In this document: piece by piece, positions 24,204 to 36,282 of the stretch | Position numbering within the stretch: the first letter of the stretch is position 1 | Layout of the letters: every line of letters begins with the position of its first letter | Source of the DNA: Solirubrobacter pauli | Lineage (GTDB): Bacteria; Actinomycetota; Thermoleophilia; Solirubrobacterales; Solirubrobacteraceae | Assembly (NCBI RefSeq): GCF_003633755.1 | Contig: NZ_RBIL01000001.1 | Coordinates: 1-64,000 of the forward strand | Reading direction: 5' to 3' | Length of the DNA: 64,000 bases | Translations under genes and position numbers: made by a program | Notes under the pieces: model-generated | Told to the model about the DNA's origin: nothing | The model's input: the letters and a program-made list of their open reading frames with translations, nothing else | The model's database searches: none

Positions 24204-24659
<456 letters not shown>

Positions 24660-24663
<4 letters not shown>

Positions 24664-26000
24664 GCGCCATCGACGAGAAGCCCTTCAACGTCATCGGCAA
24701 GCCGGTCCAGCGCCTGGACTCGCTCGGGCACGTGACCGGCCGCACGCAGTTCTTCGAGGACGTCAACCCCGCCGGGCTGCTGCATCTGAAGATGCACCGC
24801 TCCGAGCGCCACCACGCGAACATCGTGTCGGTGGACACGTCGGCCGCCGAGGCCGTCAAGGGCGTCGTGAAGATCCTCACGCACGAGGACGTGCCCAAGA
24901 ACTGGTACACGGTCCTCACGCTCATCAACGTCGGCTACCCCGAAGAGCTGGTGCTCGCCGAGAAGAAGGTGCTTTGGTACGGCGAGCCGATCGTGGCCGT
25001 GGTGGCCACGAGCGAGCGCGCCGCCCGTGAGGGCGCCGCCGCGGTGAAGGTCGTCTACGAGGACCTGGAGCCGATCTTCGACGTCGAGGAAGCGATCAAG
25101 CCGGACGCCTTCCCGCTCAAGCCGCACGGCACGAACTACTTCGAGTACGAGGGCCACCACTGCCGGCGCGTGCGTCTGGGGGACGTGGAGAAGGGGTTCG
25201 CCGAGGCGGACCACATCTTCGAGTTCAAGTACCAGTCCAAGCCGATCGAGCAGGCCCCGACCGAGACGACGGGCTGCATCGTCGAGCCCAAGGCCGACGG
25301 GCGTCTGAAGATCTACTCCAACACGCAGGCGGCGTTCTTCACCCTCGACAACACGGCGCTCATCCTCGACGTGCCGTTCGGCAAGCTGCAGCTGGTGGGC
25401 GGCACGGTCGGCGGCGGCTTCGGCGGCAAGGTGGACGTCACCGTCGAGCCGATCACGTGCATCGCGGCGATGAAGACCGGCAAGCCGGTCAAGTACGTCT
25501 ACGACCGCTACGAGGAGATGCAGGTCTCCTCCCCCCGCGCGGCGGAGCGCATCTACATCAAGGACGGCGTGATGGATGACGGGACGATCGTCGCCCGTCA
25601 GGTCACGCTCTACGCCGACGCCGGCGCGTACAGCCGCCACAGCCCGTACGCCACCACGAAGGCCGCCGCGCACATGCCGGGCCCGTACAACATCCCGAAC
25701 GTGCACATCGACTCCTGGTGCGTCTACACCAACCGCACACCGTCTTCGGCCATGCGCGGCTTCGGCGTGACCATCGGGGACTTCGCGCTGGAGACGTCGA
25801 TGGACCGGATCGCGCGCGCGCTGAACCTCGATCCGCTGCAGCTGCGCCTCAAGAACGCCTACCGCGACGGTGACATGAAGGCGCACCACAAGGTGGCGGA
25901 GGGCACCGCGATCATCGAGGTCATCCAGAAGGCGGCCGAGCAGGTCGGCCACGAGCTGCCCGACGAGTACCGGGCGATGTCGTCGAAGGAGGCTCGCTAG
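24660..26000 (+). CDS. Molybdenum hydroxylase large subunit, N-terminal half
   Basis: 446 residues. It covers the aldehyde oxidase/xanthine dehydrogenase a/b hammerhead domain (IGKPVQRLDSLGHVTGRTQFFEDV to about residue 150) and the first molybdopterin-binding domain (GGTVGGGFGGKVDV, SAMRGFGVTIGDFALETSMD). It lacks the CO dehydrogenase active-site loop AYxCSFR; the equivalent MRGFG is of the xanthine/nicotinate-dehydrogenase type. It ends at TAG 25998-26000 in EEYRAMSS-KEAR-like sequence, exactly where the second half begins in the same frame. The cofactor is bound only if both halves associate. Confidence 0.88.
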
Positions 26001-27008
26001 ATGGCCAAGCTCCGCGGACGCGGCTACGCCGCCGTCAACTACCCGACCGGCATGAACCTCGGTGGCGACCCCACCCAGGCGCTCGTGCACTCCACCACCA
26101 CGGGCAACTTCGTCGTCTCGCTGTCGTCGGTGGACCTCGGCCAGGGCCTGAAGACCGTCGCCGCGCAGGTGGCGGCGGAGACGCTCGGCCTGCCGTACGA
26201 GAACATCATCGTCGACACCGCCGACACCGACACGGGCCCGCACTGCATGGGCACGTTCGCCTCCCGCGGCACGCACCGCGTCGGCAACGCCGTGATCATG
26301 GCCGCGCAGGAGGCGCGCGAGGCGATGCTGGCGGCGGCCGCCGAGGAGCTCGAGGTCGACGCCGAGGACCTGGAGACCGATGGCACCGGCTTCATCAAGC
26401 TCAAGGGCTCCGAGGAAGTCAAGATCCACGTCGTCGACCTGGCGATGGCCGCGCACTTCAAGCTCGGCCGCACGATCGCGGGCCGCGGCATCTTCCTCAA
26501 GGAACGCTCGTACCCGGACCCGGAGACGGGCAAGATGGACCCCGACTCCGCGCAGGCCCACGCCTGCACGGTGGCCGACGTCGAGGTCGACGACGAGACC
26601 GGCGTCATCGAGGTGCTCGCGCTGCACAACGTGTACGAGGTCGGTCGCGCGATCAACCCCAGGATGGCCAAGCAGCAGATCGAGGGCGGCGCCTGGATGG
26701 GCATCTCCCACGCGCTGTTCGAGGCGACGGACCCGTATTACCCGCAGCGCGACCACGGCCCGCGGGACTTCGAGGAGTACCTGATGCCCGGGCCGGCGGA
26801 CAACGCCGTGATGGAGTCCGACATCATCGAGTTCCCGGCGGCGAACGGGCCGTACGGCGCGAAGGGCATCGGCGAGATGACCGCCAACGCGCCGATCCCG
26901 GCGATCGCCAACGCGGTGTTCGACGCGTGCGGCGTGCGGCTCACCGAGATGCCGTTCACGCCGGAGTCGGTCCTGCGTGGCCTCGACGAGCTGCGAGCAC
27001 GTGCCTGA
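26001..27008 (+). CDS. Molybdenum hydroxylase large subunit, C-terminal half
   Basis: 335 residues from ATG 26001, which follows the TAG of the previous gene without a single base between and in the same frame. An AAGGAGG ribosome site lies 8 nt upstream, inside the end of the first half. It contains the second molybdopterin-binding domain: GRGYAAVNYPTGMNLGG, SVDLGQGLKTVAAQVAAE, GTFASRGTHRVGNAV, and near the end GAKGIGEMTANAP, whose Glu is the catalytic base of the family. Together the halves make ~781 residues, the normal length of one subunit. Confidence 0.88.
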   Translation: MAKLRGRGYAAVNYPTGMNLGGDPTQALVHSTTTGNFVVSLSSVDLGQGLKTVAAQVAAETLGLPYENIIVDTADTDTGPHCMGTFASRGTHRVGNAVIMAAQEAREAMLAAAAEELEVDAEDLETDGTGFIKLKGSEEVKIHVVDLAMAAHFKLGRTIAGRGIFLKERSYPDPETGKMDPDSAQAHACTVADVEVDDETGVIEVLALHNVYEVGRAINPRMAKQQIEGGAWMGISHALFEATDPYYPQRDHGPRDFEEYLMPGPADNAVMESDIIEFPAANGPYGAKGIGEMTANAPIPAIANAVFDACGVRLTEMPFTPESVLRGLDELRARA

Positions 27009-27849
27009 TCCGATCGAGGCTCTGGGACGGCGGTTGGCGGCGGAGCAGTACTTCGCCGACGAAGGCCTGCTGACCGCCGCCCACCTCTCGCTGACGCTCG
27101 GCCGGCCGCTCCTGCTGGAGGGCGAGCCGGGCGTCGGCAAGACGGAGATCGCCAAGGTGCTCGCCCGCGTGCACGACCGCGAGCTGATCCGCCTGCAGTG
27201 CTACGAGGGCCTCGACGCCGCGCAGGCGCTGTACGAGTGGGACCACCCCAAGCAGCTGCTGGCGATCCGCACGTGCGAGGCCGAGAACCGTCCGGTCGGC
27301 GAGCTCTACGACGAGTCGTTCCTGATGGAGCGGCCGCTGCTGCGCGCGCTGCGCGTGCCGTGCGTGCTGCTGATCGACGAGATCGACCGCGCGGACTCGG
27401 AGTTCGAGGCGTTCCTGCTCGAGTTCCTCAGCGACTTCCAGATCACGATCCCCGAGCTCGGGACGATCGCCGCCGCCGAGCGGCCGATCGTGATCATGAC
27501 GTCCAACCGCACGCGGGAGCTGCACGACGCGCTCAAGCGCCGCTGCCTCTACCACTGGATCGCGTTCCCGGACTCCAGCCGCGAGAAGCGGATCATCGAG
27601 TCGCGCGTGCCGGGCCTGCCGGAGGACGCGGCCAAGACGCTCGTGGCGGCGGTGGCCGGCGTGCGCGACCTGGACCTGATCAAGCCGCCGGGGATCGCGG
27701 AGTCGATCGAGTGGGGCCAGGCGGCGAAGGTGCTCCTGCACGAGGGGGCCGACTGGCCGAGCGCGCTCAAGCGGTCGCTCGGGCTGCTCGTCAAGGAGCA
27801 GGAGGACACCGAGACGGTGCTGGCGCACGCGGAGGGCCTCGGGCTGTGA
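27001..27849 (+). CDS. MoxR-type AAA+ ATPase (CoxD-like)
   Basis: 282 residues from GTG 27001, chosen because it overlaps the upstream stop by 8 bp; a GTG at 26977 is possible. Walker A GEPGVGKTEIAK, Walker B VLLIDEIDRADSEFEAFLLE, sensor 1 IVIMTSNRTREL, Arg finger region KRRCLYHWIAFPD. The MoxR/CoxD group works with VWA proteins to mature or load metal sites; in carboxydotrophs CoxD is needed for the sulfurated Mo-Cu centre. Position between hydroxylase and VWA genes matches cox/xdh maturation loci. Confidence 0.88.
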   Translation: MPDPIEALGRRLAAEQYFADEGLLTAAHLSLTLGRPLLLEGEPGVGKTEIAKVLARVHDRELIRLQCYEGLDAAQALYEWDHPKQLLAIRTCEAENRPVGELYDESFLMERPLLRALRVPCVLLIDEIDRADSEFEAFLLEFLSDFQITIPELGTIAAAERPIVIMTSNRTRELHDALKRRCLYHWIAFPDSSREKRIIESRVPGLPEDAAKTLVAAVAGVRDLDLIKPPGIAESIEWGQAAKVLLHEGADWPSALKRSLGLLVKEQEDTETVLAHAEGLGL

Positions 27850-28877
27850 GCACGGTCGCGGGCACGCTGCTGGAGGACTTCGTGACCGCGCTGCACGTGG
27901 GCGTCGAGCGGCGCGCGGACTTCCTCACCGCGCTGCGTGACAACCCGCCGCAGGACATCCAGCGGCTCTACTGGCTCGCGCGCGTGACGCTGGTCGACCG
28001 GCTCGAGACCATCCCGGCGTTCGACGCCGTCTTCTCCGCCTACTTCCTGGGCGCGCCGCCCCAGCCCTCCCCGCAGCGGGACGGCGAGAGCGAGGCGCCC
28101 GACCCGCAGGACGGCGGCGAGCTCGAGCCGATCGTGATGGGCGAGGGCACGGGCAAGGAGGCGAGCGTCCACGACCTGCGCCACCGGCGCGCCTACGCCG
28201 GCGGCACCGAGGACCTGGCCGAGCTGCGCCGCGCGCTGGCCGAGCACCTGCCGAAGATCCGCTCGCGCCGGCGCCGCCCGCACCGCCGCGGGCAGCTGGA
28301 CGTGCGCCGGACGCTGCGCCACGCGACCCGCACGGGCGAGATCACGATGCTCGCCCGCCGCGGCCGGCCGCACCGCACGCGGCCGATGCTGCTGCTGATC
28401 GACGTGTCCGGCTCGTTGCGCGAGCACACGCCGGACTACCTGCGCTTCGCCTGGGCGGCGCAGTGCGAGACGTTCACGTTCGGCACGCACCTGACCCGGG
28501 TCACGCGCCAGCTGCGCCAGCGTGAGCTGCACACCGCGCTGGCCGAGGTCAGCGCGGTGGTCGAGGACGCCGACGGCGGCACGCGCATCGGCCCCTCCCT
28601 GCACGAGTTCGTGACCACGCCGCGCTACGCCGACCGGGCGCGCGGCGCGCTCACGATCGTCCTCTCGGACGGCCTCGAGCGCGGCGCCCCCGAGCAGATG
28701 GTCGCCGCCGTGCATCGCCTCGCGAAGCTGTCCCACAGGTTGCTGTGGTGGTCTCCGCTGGCGCTCCACCCGGAGTACCGCCCGGTCACCCGCGCGATGG
28801 CCGCGATCGTCGACGACGTCGACCTCGCGGGCGCGCGCGACCTGAAGTCGTTGCTGGAAAGGGTGCGTGAGCTGTGA
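27846..28877 (+). CDS. VWA-domain protein (CoxE-like)
   Basis: 343 residues from GTG 27846 (GTGA overlap with the ATPase). The N-terminal helical part is basic and includes RSRRRRPHRRGQLD. The C-terminal von Willebrand A domain starts at RPMLLLIDVSGSLREHTPDYLRFA with the MIDAS motif DVSGS, and continues with GGTRIGPSLHEF and the Asp in LTIVLSDGLERG. It partners with the MoxR ATPase in metallocofactor maturation. Confidence 0.87.
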   Translation: MSTVAGTLLEDFVTALHVGVERRADFLTALRDNPPQDIQRLYWLARVTLVDRLETIPAFDAVFSAYFLGAPPQPSPQRDGESEAPDPQDGGELEPIVMGEGTGKEASVHDLRHRRAYAGGTEDLAELRRALAEHLPKIRSRRRRPHRRGQLDVRRTLRHATRTGEITMLARRGRPHRTRPMLLLIDVSGSLREHTPDYLRFAWAAQCETFTFGTHLTRVTRQLRQRELHTALAEVSAVVEDADGGTRIGPSLHEFVTTPRYADRARGALTIVLSDGLERGAPEQMVAAVHRLAKLSHRLLWWSPLALHPEYRPVTRAMAAIVDDVDLAGARDLKSLLERVREL

Positions 28878-29767
28878 GCGGATACGTGGATGCCCATCAC
28901 CACATCTGGCGGGTCCAGGACCTGCCGTGGCTGAGCGGGCCGATGATCCCGCGCATCTTCGGGCCCTACGAGTCCTTGCAGCAACGCGACTACCTGGGCC
29001 GCGAGTACGGCGCCGAGGCGGCCGCGCACGGCTTCACGCAGTCGGTCTACACGCAGGCCAACTGGCCGTTGGACCGCTCGGTGGACGAGGTCGAGTGGGT
29101 CCAGGCCCAGCACGAGGAGTCGGGCTGGCCGAGCGCGATCGTCGGGTCGGCCGACCTGTTCAGCCCGCGCGCGTCTGAGACCTTCGACGCGCAGACCGCC
29201 GCGTCCCCGCTGATGCGCGGCTGCCGCCTGCAGGTGCACTGGCATGAGCACGAGGCGTTCCGGTTCGCCAAGTCCGCCGACGCCATGCTCGACCCGATCT
29301 TCAACGAGAACCTCGAGCGGATCGCCGAGCGTGGCTGGGTGTTCGAGCTGCAGGCGTTCCCGAACCAGCTGCCGTACGTGCGCGAGCTGCTCGGCAACCA
29401 CCCGGACCTGACGTTCGTGATCATCCACGCCGGCATGCCGATCGAGGGCGAGCCGTGGCGCGAGTTCCTGCACGAGCTGGCGACGTTCCCGAACCTCAAC
29501 GTCAAGCTCAGCGGCCAGGGCACGTTCATCCACCGCGTCGACCCGGACTGGATCAGGACCGTCACGCAGGTCGTCGTCGACGCGTTCGGCTCCGACCGCG
29601 CGATGTTCGGCACGAACTTCCCGGTGGAGAGCATCTGGACCGACTTCTCTAGCCTGGTCAAAGCGTGGTTCGGCGTGTTGGCCGACTTCCCGCAGGCGGT
29701 CCAGGACGACGTCCTGGGCCGGACCGCGCGCCGCGTTTACAGGCTCGCCGAGGAGGGACCCCGATGA
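28874..29767 (+). CDS. Amidohydrolase-2 family metal-dependent hydrolase
   Basis: 297 residues from GTG 28874 (GTGA overlap). TIM-barrel hydrolase: metal-binding HxH in VDAHHHIW at the N-terminus, VHWHEHEAF, VIIHAGMP (strand 6 His), and MFGTNFPVES near the C-terminus, where the usual Asp in the SDWP-like motif is replaced by Asn/Pro. The family includes lactonases (2-pyrone-4,6-dicarboxylate and sugar lactonases) and decarboxylases. In this operon a ring-opening lactone or amide hydrolysis step is plausible; it is not proven. Confidence 0.82.
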   Translation: MSGYVDAHHHIWRVQDLPWLSGPMIPRIFGPYESLQQRDYLGREYGAEAAAHGFTQSVYTQANWPLDRSVDEVEWVQAQHEESGWPSAIVGSADLFSPRASETFDAQTAASPLMRGCRLQVHWHEHEAFRFAKSADAMLDPIFNENLERIAERGWVFELQAFPNQLPYVRELLGNHPDLTFVIIHAGMPIEGEPWREFLHELATFPNLNVKLSGQGTFIHRVDPDWIRTVTQVVVDAFGSDRAMFGTNFPVESIWTDFSSLVKAWFGVLADFPQAVQDDVLGRTARRVYRLAEEGPR

Positions 29768-30924
29768 CACGTCCAGTCCAGCACACCGCCTCCGCCGTGC
29801 AGGGTTGGCTGCGTGAGGGACGACGGGTCGCGGCGGGGTTGCTCGTCGAAGTCGAAGGGTCCTCGCCGCTGGACGTCGGCGCGTCGATGTACATCGACGA
29901 CCAGGGCGGCATCGAGGGGTCGATCACGGGCGGCTGCGTCGAGGGCGCGGTCGCCGCGGCGGCGATGGAGATGCTCGAGCGCGGCGGCCCGCCGCAGCTC
30001 GTCACCTACGGGATCAGCGACGAGCTGGCCGGCACGGTCGGGCTGATGTGCGGCGGCATCGTCCACATCTTCATCCACGAGATCCGCCCGGAGCACCAGG
30101 AGGCGGTGCTCGCCGACCTGCAGGCGACCGTCGACCACTCCCCCGCCGGCCTCGTGACGCTGCTCGACGGCGAGCACGCGGGCGCGAAGCTGTACGTCGA
30201 CCACGACCGCGTGCTCGGCTCGCTCGGGGTCGGCGAGCTGCTCGACAAGAACGCCACGCGCGAGGCGCAGGGCCTGCTCGACGAGGGCCGCTCGTCACTG
30301 CGCGACTTCGGTGAGGACGGTGCCTCGCTCGGCTCCGGCTTGCGCGTCTACAACTCGATCCAGGCCGAGCCGCCGCGGATGGTCGTGTTCGGCGCGATCG
30401 ACTTCTCGAGCGCGCTCGCGCCGCTCGCCAAGGGCCTCGGCTACCGCGTGACGATCGCCGATCCCCGCTCCGCCTTCCTGAAGTCGCGCCGCTTCAGCGC
30501 CGCCGCCGAGACCGAGGTCGGCTGGCCGGACGCCGTGCTCGACGGCGTCGAGCTCGGCCCCCGCGACTCGGTCCTGATCTTCACGCACGACCCGAAGCTC
30601 GACGTGCCCGCCGTGCAGGCGGCGCTGAAGACGAACGCCGGCTACATCGGCGCGCTCGGCTCGCGCAACACCACCGCGGACCGCAACCGGCGGCTCCGCG
30701 ACGTCGGCGTCACCGACGCCGAGATCGACCGCATCTTCGCGCCCTGCGGGCTGGACATCGGCGCCTCCACCGTGGAGGAGACGGCCGTCGCCGTCCTGGC
30801 CGAGATCATAGCCCACCGTGCGGGGCGCCACGGAATGCCGCTGCGGGAGGCCGAAGGGCCGATCCGCCACGCGGATGTGATCAACGAAAGGGAAGAGCAA
30901 GCATGGCCTACACCGTCGCGGTGA
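29764..30924 (+). CDS. XdhC/CoxI family molybdenum hydroxylase maturation protein
   Basis: 386 residues from ATG 29764 (ATGA overlap). The N-terminal XdhC_CoxI domain has GSSPLDVGASMYID, then GSITGGCVEGAVAAAA and GLMCGGIVHIFI, with the conserved Cys residues thought to handle Mo-cofactor sulfuration. The C-terminal Rossmann domain begins at RMVVFGAIDFSSALAPLAKGLGYRVTIADPR and ends with GYIGALGSRNTTADR and GLDIGAST. XdhC-type proteins bind and deliver the sulfurated cofactor. The last 22 bp overlap the next gene. Confidence 0.9.
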   Translation: MTRPVQHTASAVQGWLREGRRVAAGLLVEVEGSSPLDVGASMYIDDQGGIEGSITGGCVEGAVAAAAMEMLERGGPPQLVTYGISDELAGTVGLMCGGIVHIFIHEIRPEHQEAVLADLQATVDHSPAGLVTLLDGEHAGAKLYVDHDRVLGSLGVGELLDKNATREAQGLLDEGRSSLRDFGEDGASLGSGLRVYNSIQAEPPRMVVFGAIDFSSALAPLAKGLGYRVTIADPRSAFLKSRRFSAAAETEVGWPDAVLDGVELGPRDSVLIFTHDPKLDVPAVQAALKTNAGYIGALGSRNTTADRNRRLRDVGVTDAEIDRIFAPCGLDIGASTVEETAVAVLAEIIAHRAGRHGMPLREAEGPIRHADVINEREEQAWPTPSR

Positions 30925-31256: not shown

Positions 31257-33428
31257 GTGTCGGAACTGCTGCTGTCCGACCTCTTCGCGGCCGCCGTGAA
31301 GAGCCTGCCGCTCGCGATCGTGTTCGGTGACCGCGACGGTCGCGTGCTGTATGCGAACCCGGCCGCGGACCGGCTGCTCGCCCTTGACGGCGCCGACGTG
31401 CGCGGCGTGGAGGCGGCGTCGTTCGCCGCCCCCGGCAAGGAGGACGAGGCGCGCGCGATCGTGCGCCGGCTGCTCGCCGGAGAGACGGTCGAGGACTCGG
31501 TGACGCTCGAGCTGCGCCGCGAGGACGGCTCCCGGTTCCTCGCCGAGCTGACGATCTCCCCGCTGTTCGACGACGCGGGCGGCGTCGTCGGCACGGTCGG
31601 GCTCGCGCGCGACGTGACCGAGCGGGTGGCGACCGAGGACGAGGCCGCGCGGTTGCGCGCCGTCGTCGACGCCACGGCGCAGGCGATCCTCGGCGTCGAC
31701 GCCGACGGCAAGATCCTCTTCTTCAGCTCGTCCGCGGAGCGCCTGTTCGGCTGGCGCGCGGAGGAGGTCATCGGCCGCTCCGGCGACCTGCTGGTGGTGC
31801 CGGAGCACCGGCTCGGCGCCCCCGCGCTGTTCGCGGCGTTGGCGAGCAAGGGCATGCTGCGCCGCGAGACCGTGGCGCGGCGACGCGACGGCTCGCCGGT
31901 CGAGGTCGAGGTGTGCTCGGCACCGATCCGCGACGCCACCGGCGCGATCACCGGCGCGGCGATCACCGTGCTCGACGTGTCCGAGCACCGGCGCGAGCAC
32001 CGGCTGCTGGAGCGCATCGTCGAGAACGCGCCGAACGCGATCGGCATCAAGGACCTCGACGGGCGCTACCTGCTCTTCAGCTACGGGGCCGGGGAGGCGC
32101 CGTCACCGGAAGCGGTCGGACGCACGGACGCCGAGCTCTTCGCGCCCGACGTCGCGGCGCGCAGCGCCGAGCAGGACCGGACCGTGCTCGAGCGCGGCGC
32201 ACCGACCACCTTCCGCGAGACGATCAGGTTCCGGGACGGCACGGACCACCAGTTCGTCACCACCAAGTTCCCATTGGTCGCTTCCGACGGCCGCTACGAG
32301 GGCGTCGGCGTGATCGCCGCCGACGTCACCGAGCTGCGGCAGGCCGAGCTCGACCAGGCGCGGCTCGCGGCGCTCGTCGAGGCGGCGCCCGACGCGATCG
32401 TGGCGCGCGACGAGCATGGCCGGATCGTGACCTGGAACCCCGGCGCCGAGATCGTGTTCGGGCTGCGCGCCGAGGACGCGATCGGCCGGTCCTACGCCGA
32501 TCTGGTCGTGCCCGACGAGGAGCGGGCGCGGTTCGACGCGCTGCTCGCCGAAGCGCAGGGCGGACGCACGCTGACGATCCGCGCGATGCGCCGCCGCGGC
32601 GACGGGTCGCAGTTCCCCGCCCAGGTCTCGGTCGCTCCGCTCACGCTGCTCGACGGCACCTGGAGCGGGACGTTGGCGATGATCCGCGACATCACGGACC
32701 TCGTCGAGGCCGAGGTGGCACTGCGCGAGCGCGCGACCCAGCTCGAGCGGTCCAACGCGGAGCTCGAGCGCTTCGCCTACGCGGCGAGCCACGACCTCCA
32801 GGAGCCGCTGCACTCGATCATGCTCAGCGCGGGCGCGGTGAGCCACGCCGCCGAGGACCGCCTGGCCGACGACGAGCGCGAGCTGCTCGCGAACATCGAC
32901 GCGGCCGCGAGTCGGCTCAGCGCGCAGATCCGCGGGCTGATGCAGGTCGCGCGCGTGGCCATCGGAGAGGCGGCGGGCGAGCTCGTCCCGGTCTCGGTCG
33001 CGGTGGCCGACGCCCTCGACGCGCTCCGAGCCGCCACCGTGGAAGCGCTCGCGGAGGTGATCGTGGACGAGCCGCTGCCACCGATCGAGGTGCCGCGCTC
33101 GGAGGTCGGGCTCGTGCTGCAGAACGTGATCGCCAACGCGATCAGGTACCGCCGCGAAGGCGTCCCCCCACGGGTGCACGTGACGGCCGAGGACGCGGGG
33201 GACCTCGTGGCGATCCGCGTCGCCGACAACGGCGTCGGCCTCTCCGAAGCGGATCTGACCCGGGTGTTCGGCCTGTTCGAGCGCGGCTCGACGACCGCGC
33301 CGGGCACCGGGATGGGCCTGGCCGTCGCCCGGCGGATGATCGAACGCCTCGGCGGCTCACTCGAAGCCAGCTCGGACGGACCGGGCCGCGGGAGCGTCTT
33401 CACGCTCCGCGTGCCGTATGCGCGCTAG
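31257..33428 (+). CDS. Multi-PAS sensor histidine kinase, orphan
   Basis: 723 residues from GTG 31257. Four consecutive PAS domains (about 10-125, 130-245, 250-365 and 370-485), each with a YANPA/FSSSAERLFGW/YLLF/VTWNPGAEIVFG strand. No membrane helix: a soluble sensor. A DHp helix pair follows with the phospho-acceptor His512 in YAASHDLQEPLHS. The HATPase has an N-box (NVIANAIRYR), G1 (VADNGVGLS), F/G2 (FGLFERGSTTAPGTGMGLAVARRM). PAS pockets show no Cys, so flavin-Cys photochemistry is unlikely. No response regulator gene adjoins it. Confidence 0.9.
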   Translation: MSELLLSDLFAAAVKSLPLAIVFGDRDGRVLYANPAADRLLALDGADVRGVEAASFAAPGKEDEARAIVRRLLAGETVEDSVTLELRREDGSRFLAELTISPLFDDAGGVVGTVGLARDVTERVATEDEAARLRAVVDATAQAILGVDADGKILFFSSSAERLFGWRAEEVIGRSGDLLVVPEHRLGAPALFAALASKGMLRRETVARRRDGSPVEVEVCSAPIRDATGAITGAAITVLDVSEHRREHRLLERIVENAPNAIGIKDLDGRYLLFSYGAGEAPSPEAVGRTDAELFAPDVAARSAEQDRTVLERGAPTTFRETIRFRDGTDHQFVTTKFPLVASDGRYEGVGVIAADVTELRQAELDQARLAALVEAAPDAIVARDEHGRIVTWNPGAEIVFGLRAEDAIGRSYADLVVPDEERARFDALLAEAQGGRTLTIRAMRRRGDGSQFPAQVSVAPLTLLDGTWSGTLAMIRDITDLVEAEVALRERATQLERSNAELERFAYAASHDLQEPLHSIMLSAGAVSHAAEDRLADDERELLANIDAAASRLSAQIRGLMQVARVAIGEAAGELVPVSVAVADALDALRAATVEALAEVIVDEPLPPIEVPRSEVGLVLQNVIANAIRYRREGVPPRVHVTAEDAGDLVAIRVADNGVGLSEADLTRVFGLFERGSTTAPGTGMGLAVARRMIERLGGSLEASSDGPGRGSVFTLRVPYAR

Positions 33429-34795
33429 GAGCGCGCGGCCAGCTCGCGCGCCGACATGACGCCCTGCTCGGCGAACAGCCGCTCGCCGGTGACGAGCACG
33501 TCGCGCAGGGTGCGGTCGCCCGCGGCGGCCTGATGGCGGCGGTAGGCGTCGGCCACCACCTCGCGGACCGCGGGCTCGAGGTCCTCGCCGACCTGCAGCC
33601 AGCCGCGGAGCATGCGCGTCTGGGTGGCGATCGCCTCGGCCATGACGGTGTTGACGATCGTCATCGTCAGCGCGTCGAGCCGGCCGAGCGCGAAGCCCGC
33701 GCCGGTGAAGCCCGCCGCGGTCTCGCGGCCGGGGACGAACGGCAGCGGCTCGGCGCCGGCGACCAGCTCGGCGTCGCTGCCCGCGAACAGCTCGCCACGG
33801 GCGATCGCAGCGAGGATCGCCGTGAGCTCGTGGCCGAGGTCGAGGGCACGCAGGTCGTGGGCGGCGAACGCCCGGACGACCGCGGCCGCGAAGAACAGGA
33901 AGCGCAGGTTGGCGTGGCTGGTCACGCCCGGCGCGAGCAGGTTGCCGCCCTCGGCGGTCATCAGCGACCACACGTCCGGGCGTGTCTGACCGACCTCGTC
34001 GGCGCTGAGGCCGTAGCGGCGCGCGGTGTCGCGCAGCGCGTCCCACGCCAGCCCGAGCGCGTCGGTCGCGGCGACCGCGGGCGACGGCAGCACGGTGAGC
34101 TCGTGGCGGTCGCCGGCGAAGCGCAGGCGGGCGCGGACCCCGATCCGCGCGAGCTCGCGCTCGGCGGCGCTGAGGCACGCGCGGGAGCGGTCCTCGAAGG
34201 TGCGCAGCGCGACGAGCTCCGCGTCGCGGAAGGCGAAGCCGCGCGTGAGGGCGACGGTCGACAGCGCACGGTGCGTCGCGTCCTCGCTGAGCAGCTCGAG
34301 CGCGCGCACGGCCGCGCCGGACAGCGCGTCGGTCGAGCGCAGCAGCGGCAGCCGCTCGTCGAGCGCCTCACCGAGCCCGGACGCCAGCACGCTCGGCAGG
34401 CACAGCACGGCGCCGCTCGCCTCCACCCGGATGTGCGCAGGAGCCGCCGGGTCCCACGTCAGGCCGCCCGGGGCGTCCGTGCGCAGGCCACCGACCAGGT
34501 CCGCGCCCGTGAGCCACTTGAGCTCCATCCCGTAGTGGGCGATGCCGCCCGCGAGCGTCTGCACGCGGAAGGCGACGCGCGTTGCGCCGCGGCTGCCCGC
34601 CCAGCCGCGGAGCGCCCGCGCCACCTCGTCGGCGAGCGACGGCTCGAGACCACGGCCGTCGGCGATCGCCGCCTGCAGGAGCGCGTGTCCGGCGGGAGTG
34701 AGCCACTCACGCTGCGCAGAGCCCACGAAGGCGTACGGCGCCGGGGCGACGCAGACGCGGGAATGGTGGGCTCTGGCGGTGTGGGGCTCGGACAC
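33425..34795 (-). CDS. Catalytically degenerate type-III glutamine synthetase-like protein
   Basis: 456 residues from GTG 34795 (GGAG 8 nt upstream; an ATG 26 codons earlier is possible). The order of blocks follows GSIII (GlnN): RALRGWAGSRGATRVAFRVQ, then GGLRTDAPGGLTWDP and PAHIRV, then LCLPSVLASGLGEALDERLPLLRSTDALS, a helix with ELARIGVRARLRF, WSLMTAEGGNLLAPG followed by NLRFLFFAAAVVRAF, and FTGAGFALGRLDALTMTIVNTVMAEAI. The metal-binding and active-site motifs are replaced: GPEQEYFL, NEVAPGQ(Y/H)E, KHNNWS and NDHRLGANEAP have no intact counterparts. At 456 versus ~700 residues, it should be a pseudoenzyme of unknown role. Convergent with the kinase, sharing a TAG. Confidence 0.7.
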   Translation of the reverse strand: MSEPHTARAHHSRVCVAPAPYAFVGSAQREWLTPAGHALLQAAIADGRGLEPSLADEVARALRGWAGSRGATRVAFRVQTLAGGIAHYGMELKWLTGADLVGGLRTDAPGGLTWDPAAPAHIRVEASGAVLCLPSVLASGLGEALDERLPLLRSTDALSGAAVRALELLSEDATHRALSTVALTRGFAFRDAELVALRTFEDRSRACLSAAERELARIGVRARLRFAGDRHELTVLPSPAVAATDALGLAWDALRDTARRYGLSADEVGQTRPDVWSLMTAEGGNLLAPGVTSHANLRFLFFAAAVVRAFAAHDLRALDLGHELTAILAAIARGELFAGSDAELVAGAEPLPFVPGRETAAGFTGAGFALGRLDALTMTIVNTVMAEAIATQTRMLRGWLQVGEDLEPAVREVVADAYRRHQAAAGDRTLRDVLVTGERLFAEQGVMSARELAARS

Positions 34796-34922
34796 GGGGG
34801 CGGCTCCGGTTGCGGGGAACTGCTCCGGTATACGTGCTCGCGCGACGTGCTGCGAGTGCGTAGTCCCCCGCAACGGGGAGGGCGAAGCTGCGAGGACTCG
34901 CCTAGAGGCTCATCCTCCCGCT

Positions 34923-35897
34923 CTACGGCTGCACGGTCTCGATGGTGTCGATCGGCTCCAGCTGGGAGATCTCCGCGCGGCGGTCCTCCCAGTGCGGCGG
35001 GATGCACATGTGCGTGCCGAGCTCGTCCTCGGACTCGTCGATCGTGAAGCCCTGCGGCGTCGAGTAGGCGAGCTCGAACAGCGCGCCGCCCGGCGTGCGC
35101 AGGTAGACGCTGAAGAAGTAGCCGCGGTCCTTGACGTCGGACACGTCCGTGTAGCCGAGGCCGACGATGTAGTCCTTGACCACGAGCTGGTTCTCGGCCG
35201 AGCCGACGTCGAACGCGTGGTGGTGGATCGTGCCCTCGCCGAAGCGCCACGTGCCCTGCGGCAGGTCCGGCTCCTCCACGAGCTCCAGCGTGCGGCCGTG
35301 GCCGTCGCCCTTGATCTCGTACTGGTGGTGCGCGCCGTCGGAGGCGATGTGCTCGCAGTTGAACGCCTCGCGCAGGAACTCGTCCTGCAACTCGGGCGCG
35401 CGGACGCTCGTGGTGGTGCCGTAGGCGCCGCGGATCGCGTGCTCGGCCGGCACGTCACCGCCGCCGTAGGGCTCGCGCGTGTCGTTGCGCGTCTCCCCCA
35501 CGATCTGGTACGGGATGCCGGACGGGTGGCGCAATTCCAGCCGCTCGGTGCCGAAGCGCTCGACCTGGGTCGCCTCGACGCCGGCGGCCTTCAGGCGGTC
35601 CGCCCAGTACCCGATCGACTCGGCCGGCACGGCGACGTTGATCGACTTCGCCTGGTTGGTCCCGCGCTTGCCCATCCAGCCCGCCTGGCGGTACGGGAAG
35701 CTCGTCAGGATCGTGCTCGCGTCCCCGACGCGGTTGGCGTAGTAGAGGTGGTAGATCGGGATCTCGCCGTCGAAGAGCACCGTCTTCTTGACGCTCTTGA
35801 GGCCGAGCGTCCGGACGTGGAAGTCGTAGTCCTCCTGCGCGCCGCCGACGCAGAACGTCAGGTGATGGGTGCCGTTGATGGTTCCCGGGTTGGGCAT
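34923..35897 (-). CDS. VOC-family ring-cleaving dioxygenase
   Basis: 324 residues from ATG 35897, chosen for the strong GGAGGAGAG ribosome site 7 nt upstream. Two tandem VOC (glyoxalase) modules: GTHHLTFCVGG and YDFHVRTLGLKSVKKTV in the first; a second with IHHHAFDVGS and LFELAYSTPQGF. The metal triad would be His (HHLTF), His (HHHAF) and Glu (FELAYS). This matches the PcpA/LinE/MhqO type of hydroquinone or catechol dioxygenases, which open para- or ortho-diphenols with Fe(II). Divergent from a SnoaL-like gene with 28 bp between starts. Confidence 0.85.
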   Translation of the reverse strand: MPNPGTINGTHHLTFCVGGAQEDYDFHVRTLGLKSVKKTVLFDGEIPIYHLYYANRVGDASTILTSFPYRQAGWMGKRGTNQAKSINVAVPAESIGYWADRLKAAGVEATQVERFGTERLELRHPSGIPYQIVGETRNDTREPYGGGDVPAEHAIRGAYGTTTSVRAPELQDEFLREAFNCEHIASDGAHHQYEIKGDGHGRTLELVEEPDLPQGTWRFGEGTIHHHAFDVGSAENQLVVKDYIVGLGYTDVSDVKDRGYFFSVYLRTPGGALFELAYSTPQGFTIDESEDELGTHMCIPPHWEDRRAEISQLEPIDTIETVQP

Positions 35898-35913
35898 CGC
35901 GGTCTCTCCTCCG

Positions 35914-35919
35914 TAGTCT
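35914..35919 (+). promoter_or_regulatory. TAGTCT -10-like box for the SnoaL-like gene
   Basis: TAGTCT ends 6 nt before ATG 35926, within the 28-bp divergent gap to the dioxygenase. Confidence 0.45.
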
Positions 35920-35925
35920 TCGCCA

Positions 35926-36282
35926 ATGTCCAGGCACGCAGACCTTTTCAAAGACATCGACTCGATGGAACCGGATGCGTTCACGCGTCATCTGTCCGAC
36001 GATGTCCGGTTCACGTTCGGCAACGCGGAGACCGTGGTCGGACGCGACGCCGTCCGTGACGTCTGGGCCGGGTTCTGCGACGGGATCGACGGCGTCCACC
36101 ACGACGTGATCGAGACGTTCGAGCAAGGCGCCGCGACGATCGTCGAGTCGACCGTCACCTACACGCGCAAGGACGGGTCGACGATCGCCCTCCCCGTGGT
36201 CACGATCTACCGCGGCGAGGGCGAGCTCATCGAGGACTACCGGATCTTCATGGACGTCGCGCCGTTGTTCGCGGCCCCGTGA
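35926..36282 (+). CDS. SnoaL/NTF2-like protein
   Basis: 118 residues. NTF2 cone: ADLFKDIDSMEPDAFTRHLSDDVRFTFGN, VVGRDAVRDVWAGFCDGI, a strand EQGAATIVESTVTYTRKDGS and ending IYRGEGELIEDYRIFMDVAPLF. The common SnoaL domain arrangement (GxxAxxxF..F...I.G..H) is present. It may isomerise or hydrate a product of the neighbouring dioxygenase, but that is inferred only from the divergent pairing. Its last 35 bp overlap the 3' end of the converging PKD gene. Confidence 0.75.
   Translation: MSRHADLFKDIDSMEPDAFTRHLSDDVRFTFGNAETVVGRDAVRDVWAGFCDGIDGVHHDVIETFEQGAATIVESTVTYTRKDGSTIALPVVTIYRGEGELIEDYRIFMDVAPLFAAP

What the first reader, a model, noticed from the sequence alone, without database searches (positions are those of the whole stretch)
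33425..34795. Degenerate type-III glutamine synthetase-like pseudoenzyme
The block order from RGATRVAFRVQ through GGLR...WDP, the LLRSTDALS stretch, NLLAPG...NLRFLFFAAAVVRA and FTGAGF...NTVMAEAI follows GSIII, but none of the metal-binding or active-site motifs survive, and it is ~250 residues short. The frame is intact and codon usage is normal, so it seems maintained. A catalytically dead GSIII relative might act as a regulator or ligand sensor of nitrogen metabolism; this is not a described family as far as I know.
Basis: partly seen in the sequence, partly recalled or inferred. Interest (0 to 1): 0.78.

Follow-up and report, generated by a model that had tools for sequence, protein, structure and literature searches.

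The report
Dead glutamine-synthetase relative under selection
A soil bacterium of the genus Solirubrobacter carries, besides its working type III glutamine synthetase, a shortened copy that has lost its whole catalytic site yet is still kept intact by natural selection in its relatives, next to a two-component signalling system and behind a conserved control site, so it has probably been re-used for a job other than making glutamine.

Summary
Window 33425-34795 (minus strand, 456 aa) encodes a divergent paralogue of type III glutamine synthetase (Pfam GSIII_N E=4e-15; E=6e-43 to the genome's own intact 729-codon GSIII frame). The metal-binding and catalytic motifs (EQE, NEVAP, HEKPFAG, GSGKH, NEAPPAI, FEFR) are substituted or deleted in it and in three distinct orthologue sequences; only one arginine of the NRTSP motif persists. 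The gene is not decaying randomly: pairwise omega is 0.08, against 0.04-0.13 for neighbours and 0.06-0.07 for GSIII. It was found only in Solirubrobacter (five of seven genomes, four distinct sequences). A sixth genome has a 113-aa remnant of the C-terminal part in the same slot; the seventh has none. Beyond the finding: every copy has the palindrome CTCCCC-N4-5-GGGGGA (one mismatch in one genome) upstream. The same site lies upstream of a secreted CAP-domain gene that, with a NarL-type response regulator, is the ancestral neighbour; it stayed with both genes after they were separated by about 3 Mb. Best reading: a GSIII-derived pseudoenzyme re-used as a non-catalytic protein in a two-component regulon. 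A nitrogen-sensor role is not supported. What the protein binds is unknown.

The parts
33425..34795 (-). GSIII-derived pseudoenzyme gene (psGS), 456 aa, GTG start
   Evidence: Pfam GSIII_N; phmmer to own GSIII E=6e-43; catalytic motifs lost in all orthologues; omega 0.08
33524..33910 (-). C-terminal part of psGS that matches the 113-aa remnant in the sixth Solirubrobacter genome (G137)
   Evidence: tblastn 36% identity
34864..34880 (-). palindrome CTCCCCGTTGCGGGGGA, about 85 nt upstream of the psGS start; conserved upstream of every psGS and of the CAP gene
34827..34832 (-). TATACC element, 37 nt upstream of the start (-10-like; position conserved at -37 to -47)
   Evidence: function not tested
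34804..34808 (-). CGGAG, likely ribosome binding site, 13 nt upstream of the GTG; conserved position (-12 to -14) in the orthologues and the remnant
31257..33428 (+). PAS-domain histidine kinase, convergent with psGS and overlapping its end by 4 bp; its orthologue lies on the same side of psGS in the other species
   Evidence: Pfam PAS/HisKA/HATPase_c; synteny
34923..35984 (-). VOC/glyoxalase-fold protein, conserved neighbour on the other side of psGS
   Evidence: weak Pfam Glyoxalase match just below cut-off; synteny

Best explanation
Shown: the gene encodes a paralogue of type III glutamine synthetase that kept the GSIII core but lost the metal-binding residues, the glutamate flap loop and the nucleotide loop; it is confined to Solirubrobacter as far as searched and is under purifying selection. 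It has its own upstream region with a palindrome CTCCCC-N4-5-GGGGGA, a TATACC element and a ribosome binding site; the palindrome is shared with a secreted CAP-domain gene that is its ancestral divergent neighbour, beside a PAS histidine kinase and a NarL-family response regulator. Inferred: the protein is a non-catalytic, partner-binding product of a small two-component regulon, made together with the CAP protein when the kinase/regulator pair is active, with the regulator (or another factor) binding the palindrome. Because one species keeps only a 113-aa C-terminal part, the working part is more likely the C-terminal helical segment (about residues 293-424) than the former active-site cleft.
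For: Homology to GSIII; motif losses shared by four distinct sequences; 97 amino-acid differences seen against 161 +/- 6 expected if the same nucleotide changes fell at random; ML omega 0.084, LRT 210, like neighbours and GSIII; 30 positions invariant in psGS where GSIII is variable, which suggests new constraints; conserved synteny HK-(RR)-psGS-(CAP)-VOC; palindrome upstream of all four psGS sequences, the remnant and both relocated CAP genes, absent beside the RR of the genome lacking both genes; 113-aa remnant with open frame and GGAGG; fold match to GSIII, Z about 20.
Against: No partner, ligand or expression datum exists. Binding of the response regulator to the palindrome is guessed from gene neighbourhood; in the window genome the regulator orthologue lies 3 Mb away. 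Similar palindromes occur at other sites (3-8 per genome, one just upstream of a LeuA-like gene), so the site is not unique to this regulon. The model has only moderate confidence (pLDDT 62) and its alignment contained GSIII rows. The remnant in G137 could be a decaying end-stage rather than a functional core, and the C-terminal segment folded alone gave a poor model. No stretch of psGS stood out as more constrained than the rest in the close pair.
Confidence: 0.55

Rival explanations
1. Subunit-poison or assembly regulator of the true GSIII: psGS joins GSIII rings and disables the shared active sites at subunit interfaces.
For: Paralogue of an oligomeric enzyme whose active sites lie between subunits (general knowledge of GS); GSIII core and fold kept; every psGS genome also has a full-length GSIII frame.
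Against: psGS changes fast (60% identity between clades) while its would-be partner stays about 92-93% identical; the G137 version lacks the N-terminal half that would help form the interface; the C-terminal domain is lost in the window lineage.
Confidence: 0.15
2. Slow relic: a former GSIII duplicate on its way out, with no present function.
For: Step-wise shortening within one genus (585/545 to 456 to 113 aa to absent); fast protein divergence; no catalytic residues.
Against: omega 0.08-0.10 in both close pairs, no frameshift or stop in four lineages, conserved palindrome, ribosome binding site and start.
Confidence: 0.13
3. Nitrogen or ligand sensor as first proposed: psGS binds glutamate, glutamine, ATP or PII and reports nitrogen status.
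For: Origin from GSIII; one Arg of the NRTSP motif kept.
Against: Metal, nucleotide-loop and glutamate-flap residues deleted or replaced in all orthologues; no nitrogen gene seen in the conserved neighbourhood.
Confidence: 0.08
4. A new enzyme: a different catalytic site has evolved on the GS scaffold.
For: 45 GSIII-conserved positions are switched to another invariant residue.
Against: Most switched positions are hydrophobic or small; no new invariant His or Cys appears among them; most conserved cleft loops are deleted.
Confidence: 0.05

Closest known systems
Type III glutamine synthetase (GlnN; PDB 3o6x, 7u6o; Pfam PF12437/PF00120/PF18318)
   Same: Homologous over the N-terminal and catalytic-domain core, same block order, same predicted fold
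   Different: 260 residues shorter than host GSIII, no PF00120 or PF18318 match, catalytic motifs lost, fast evolving, different gene neighbourhood
Lengsin (vertebrate lens; class I GS remnant, described in PMC2667176 as dodecameric and not catalytically active)
   Same: GS-fold protein that lost activity and was kept for another role
   Different: Derived from class I GS in animals and said to keep conserved functionally important GSI regions; psGS derives from GSIII, is bacterial and lost the site wholesale
GlnA2/GlnA3/GlnA4 GS-like enzymes of actinobacteria (e.g. PMC6529630, PMC5403932)
   Same: Extra GS-like paralogues in an actinobacterium
   Different: Those are active gamma-glutamyl-amine ligases; psGS is GSIII-derived and lacks the site

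Membership tests
Type III glutamine synthetase (GSIII) | GSIII_N domain (PF12437) | tested here: met
   E=3.8e-15, 56.3 bits against a cut-off of 25
Type III glutamine synthetase (GSIII) | Gln-synt_C catalytic domain (PF00120) and Gln-synt_C-ter (PF18318) recognisable | tested here: not met
   No match at E up to 10 for the window protein; the control GSIII L035 matches both
Type III glutamine synthetase (GSIII) | Metal-binding Glu/His and catalytic motifs EQE, NEVAP, GSGKH, NEAPPAI, NRTSP, FEFR | tested here: not met
   Substituted or deleted in all four distinct sequences; only the Arg of NRTSP is kept
Type III glutamine synthetase (GSIII) | About 700-730 residues with C-terminal helical domain | tested here: not met
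   456 aa; 545-585 aa in two other lineages
Type III glutamine synthetase (GSIII) | GSIII fold | tested here: met
   AlphaFold2 model, Z 20.6/20.3 to 7u6o/3o6x (rmsd 10.7/9.9 over 390/365 residues), other GS at 11-13; model pLDDT 62 and GSIII rows in the alignment, so not wholly independent
Type III glutamine synthetase (GSIII) | Glutamine synthetase activity and double-ring oligomer | not testable with these tools
   needs protein
Pseudoenzyme (catalytically dead paralogue kept for another role) | Homologue of an enzyme with key catalytic residues lost | tested here: met
Pseudoenzyme (catalytically dead paralogue kept for another role) | Maintained by selection after the loss | tested here: met
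   omega 0.084 and 0.105 in the two close pairs, both after the shared losses; shuffle test
Pseudoenzyme (catalytically dead paralogue kept for another role) | Demonstrated non-catalytic function | not testable with these tools
   needs experiment

The most novel reading that the evidence does not exclude
A glutamine synthetase III scaffold, stripped of catalysis, has become a signalling or envelope-linked partner protein whose working part is a roughly 110-130-residue C-terminal helical segment, controlled with a secreted CAP-domain protein by a PAS-kinase/NarL-type regulator through one shared palindrome.
Probability: 0.25. Interest if true: 0.65.

Novelty: new variant of a known kind. Interest (0 to 1): 0.45.

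Why it matters
GS-fold pseudoenzymes are known (lengsin), but none derived from GSIII turned up in the papers searched. Here one genus holds a graded series (545-585, 456, 113 aa, absent) with purifying selection and a conserved control site, so one can ask directly which part of a dead enzyme is kept and for what. It also warns that GSIII_N hits in genome annotation need not mean a glutamine synthetase.

Tried and rejected
NCBIfam gave no family for the protein. Hits in other genera at first looked like relatives (G147, G139, G102, G352, Longimicrobium L035); the four read through (G147, G139, G102, L035) are ordinary GSIII with motifs present, and G352 carries the GSIII motifs used as a filter. 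An apparent read-through of the C-terminal domain past the stop in S. phytolaccae was antisense of the histidine kinase, not a relic. The idea that one deletion removed both the C-terminal domain and the RR gene in the window lineage was dropped, because the RR orthologue survives 3 Mb away with the CAP gene. Tandem operon with the VOC gene: not favoured, since the CAP gene lies between them in other species. Palindrome as terminator: not favoured, since in three genomes it lies between two divergent starts and has no T run. Origin within GSIII could not be placed: psGS is one clade (100/100) on a very long branch (4.27) with odd composition. Folding the C-terminal segment alone gave pLDDT 59, pTM 0.31, uninformative. 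The plasmid search found only GSIII-like hits. A plain Nei-Gojobori omega (about 0.35 in the close pair) is inflated by 96% GC3; the ML estimate with F3x4 is preferred, though for distant pairs dS is saturated and unreliable.

Full report
Identity. The finding's interval holds one ORF on the minus strand, 34795-33425, 456 aa, GTG start. The genome is a Solirubrobacter: its closest orthologue is in S. phytolaccae (79% identity, L034), which is genome G135. Pfam finds GSIII_N (E=3.8e-15), not the catalytic or C-terminal GS domains. The host has a separate intact GSIII (729-codon frame) to which the protein aligns with E=6e-43.

What is lost. In an alignment with 32 GSIII sequences, 295 columns are at least 95% conserved in GSIII; the window protein keeps 96, lacks 103 and differs in the rest. 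EQEYF reads TRGFA, NEVAP is gone, HEKPFAG is deleted, GSGKHNNWS reads GQTRPDVWS, the RASVANAGQDHRLGANEAPPA loop is deleted, NRTSPFAFTGNKFEFRA reads GRETAAGFTGAGFALGR. The same holds for the three other distinct sequences. Mapping these motifs to metal binding (Glu, His), the glutamate flap and phosphate-binding Arg rests on general knowledge of GS. One Arg (R357) and scattered structural residues survive. Thirty positions invariant in psGS lie where GSIII is variable, a hint of new constraints.

Distribution. Protein and profile searches found it in 5 of 7 Solirubrobacter genomes (G133 and G134 are identical at this gene) and in no other genus among 146 genomes of the family, 232 of the order, 399 drawn from the class and 396 drawn from the phylum; the other hits that were read are ordinary GSIII. 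G137 has, in the same slot, a 113-aa ORF matching residues 296-424, with GGAGG 13 nt before its ATG. G136 has neither. G134 and G138 have a further C-terminal part that aligns with the GSIII C-terminus and is absent in the window and S. phytolaccae.

Selection. Shuffling the observed nucleotide differences over sites with the same base gives 161 +/- 6 expected amino-acid differences; 97 are seen (window versus S. phytolaccae); 227 +/- 7 expected versus 138 seen for G134 against G138. Pairwise ML with F3x4 gives omega 0.084 (LRT 210) and 0.105; neighbours give 0.04-0.13 and GSIII 0.06-0.07. The protein itself diverges faster (60% identity between clades) than GSIII (92-93%).

Fold. AlphaFold2 with four rows (two psGS, two GSIII) gave pLDDT 62, pTM 0.57; the best PDB matches are the two solved GSIII (Foldseek E 2.5e-15 and 7.1e-15; VIA Z 20.6 and 20.3), other GS follow at Z 11-13. 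Since GSIII rows were in the alignment this supports rather than proves the fold independently.

Neighbourhood. On one side lie a PAS histidine kinase (convergent, 4-bp overlap in the window), then XdhC/CoxI, an amidohydrolase, CoxE/VWA, a MoxR-like ATPase and a molybdopterin-binding protein; on the other a VOC-fold protein and SnoaL. In G134, G138 and G137 the order is HK, NarL-type RR, psGS (or its remnant), CAP-domain gene (divergent), VOC. In the window genome and S. phytolaccae the RR and CAP genes sit together elsewhere (G000:C1 about 3.12 Mb) beside another PAS kinase.

Control site. The palindrome CTCCCC-N4-5-GGGGGA (one mismatch in G138) lies upstream of all four psGS sequences and the remnant (about -85 to -124), and between RR and CAP at the relocated sites in both genomes; it is absent after the RR of G136, which has neither gene. 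In local shuffles the observed score was reached 0 of 300 times in six of the seven regions and 4 of 300 in the seventh. Each genome has only 3-8 exact matches genome-wide against 0-2 for the reversed pattern. A second, similar copy about 20-30 bp away is present in G134, G138 and G137. A TATACC element at -37 to -47 and GGAG at -12 to -14 are also shared (S. phytolaccae has TACAAC). That the site stayed with both genes after they were separated is the best evidence that they share a regulator. That this regulator is the NarL-type RR is inference.

Mechanism. By its residues the protein cannot be a glutamine synthetase. The best reading is a re-used, non-catalytic protein made under a two-component system together with a secreted CAP protein, acting through binding to a partner. 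Against a GSIII-poison role speak its fast divergence and the half-missing form in G137; against a nitrogen sensor, the loss of the ligand sites and the lack of nitrogen genes nearby; against mere decay, the selection and control-site data. None of this names the partner.

Literature. Searches for GSIII with pseudoenzyme, GS-like inactive proteins in actinobacteria, and Solirubrobacter with glutamine synthetase returned nothing on a GSIII-derived pseudoenzyme in the titles and abstracts listed; lengsin is the nearest precedent (PMC2667176). Only open-licence papers were searched.

Noticed in passing
L068:9028-9366 (-) (G137:C7): 113-aa ORF with GGAGG before its ATG, retaining only the C-terminal part of psGS in the same syntenic slot; could be a minimal functional form or an end-stage relic.
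   Followed up: partly
L118:1787 (G000:C2:1847386): CTCCCCCGCTAGGGGGA just upstream of a LeuA-like (isopropylmalate synthase family by its motif) gene; the identical 17-mer occurs once each in G133, G134, G135 and G138, so it may be a separate control element or hairpin of the same shape (gene context checked only in G000).
   Followed up: no
L114:5532 (G000:C1:3608530): Palindrome TCCCCCGCTCGGGGGA, identical core also in G133, G134 and G135, in an intergenic stretch near a large surface-protein-like ORF; perhaps a hairpin or terminator.
   Followed up: no
L115:2974-4252 (G000:C1 about 3.12 Mb): NarL-type response regulator, palindrome and secreted CAP-domain gene next to a second PAS kinase; in other species the RR and CAP genes sit beside psGS, so the module was moved in the window lineage.
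   Followed up: partly
window 24204-30924: Conserved molybdenum-hydroxylase accessory cluster (MoCoBD_2, MoxR-like, CoxE, amidohydrolase, XdhC/CoxI) next to the psGS locus; its substrate is unknown.
   Followed up: no
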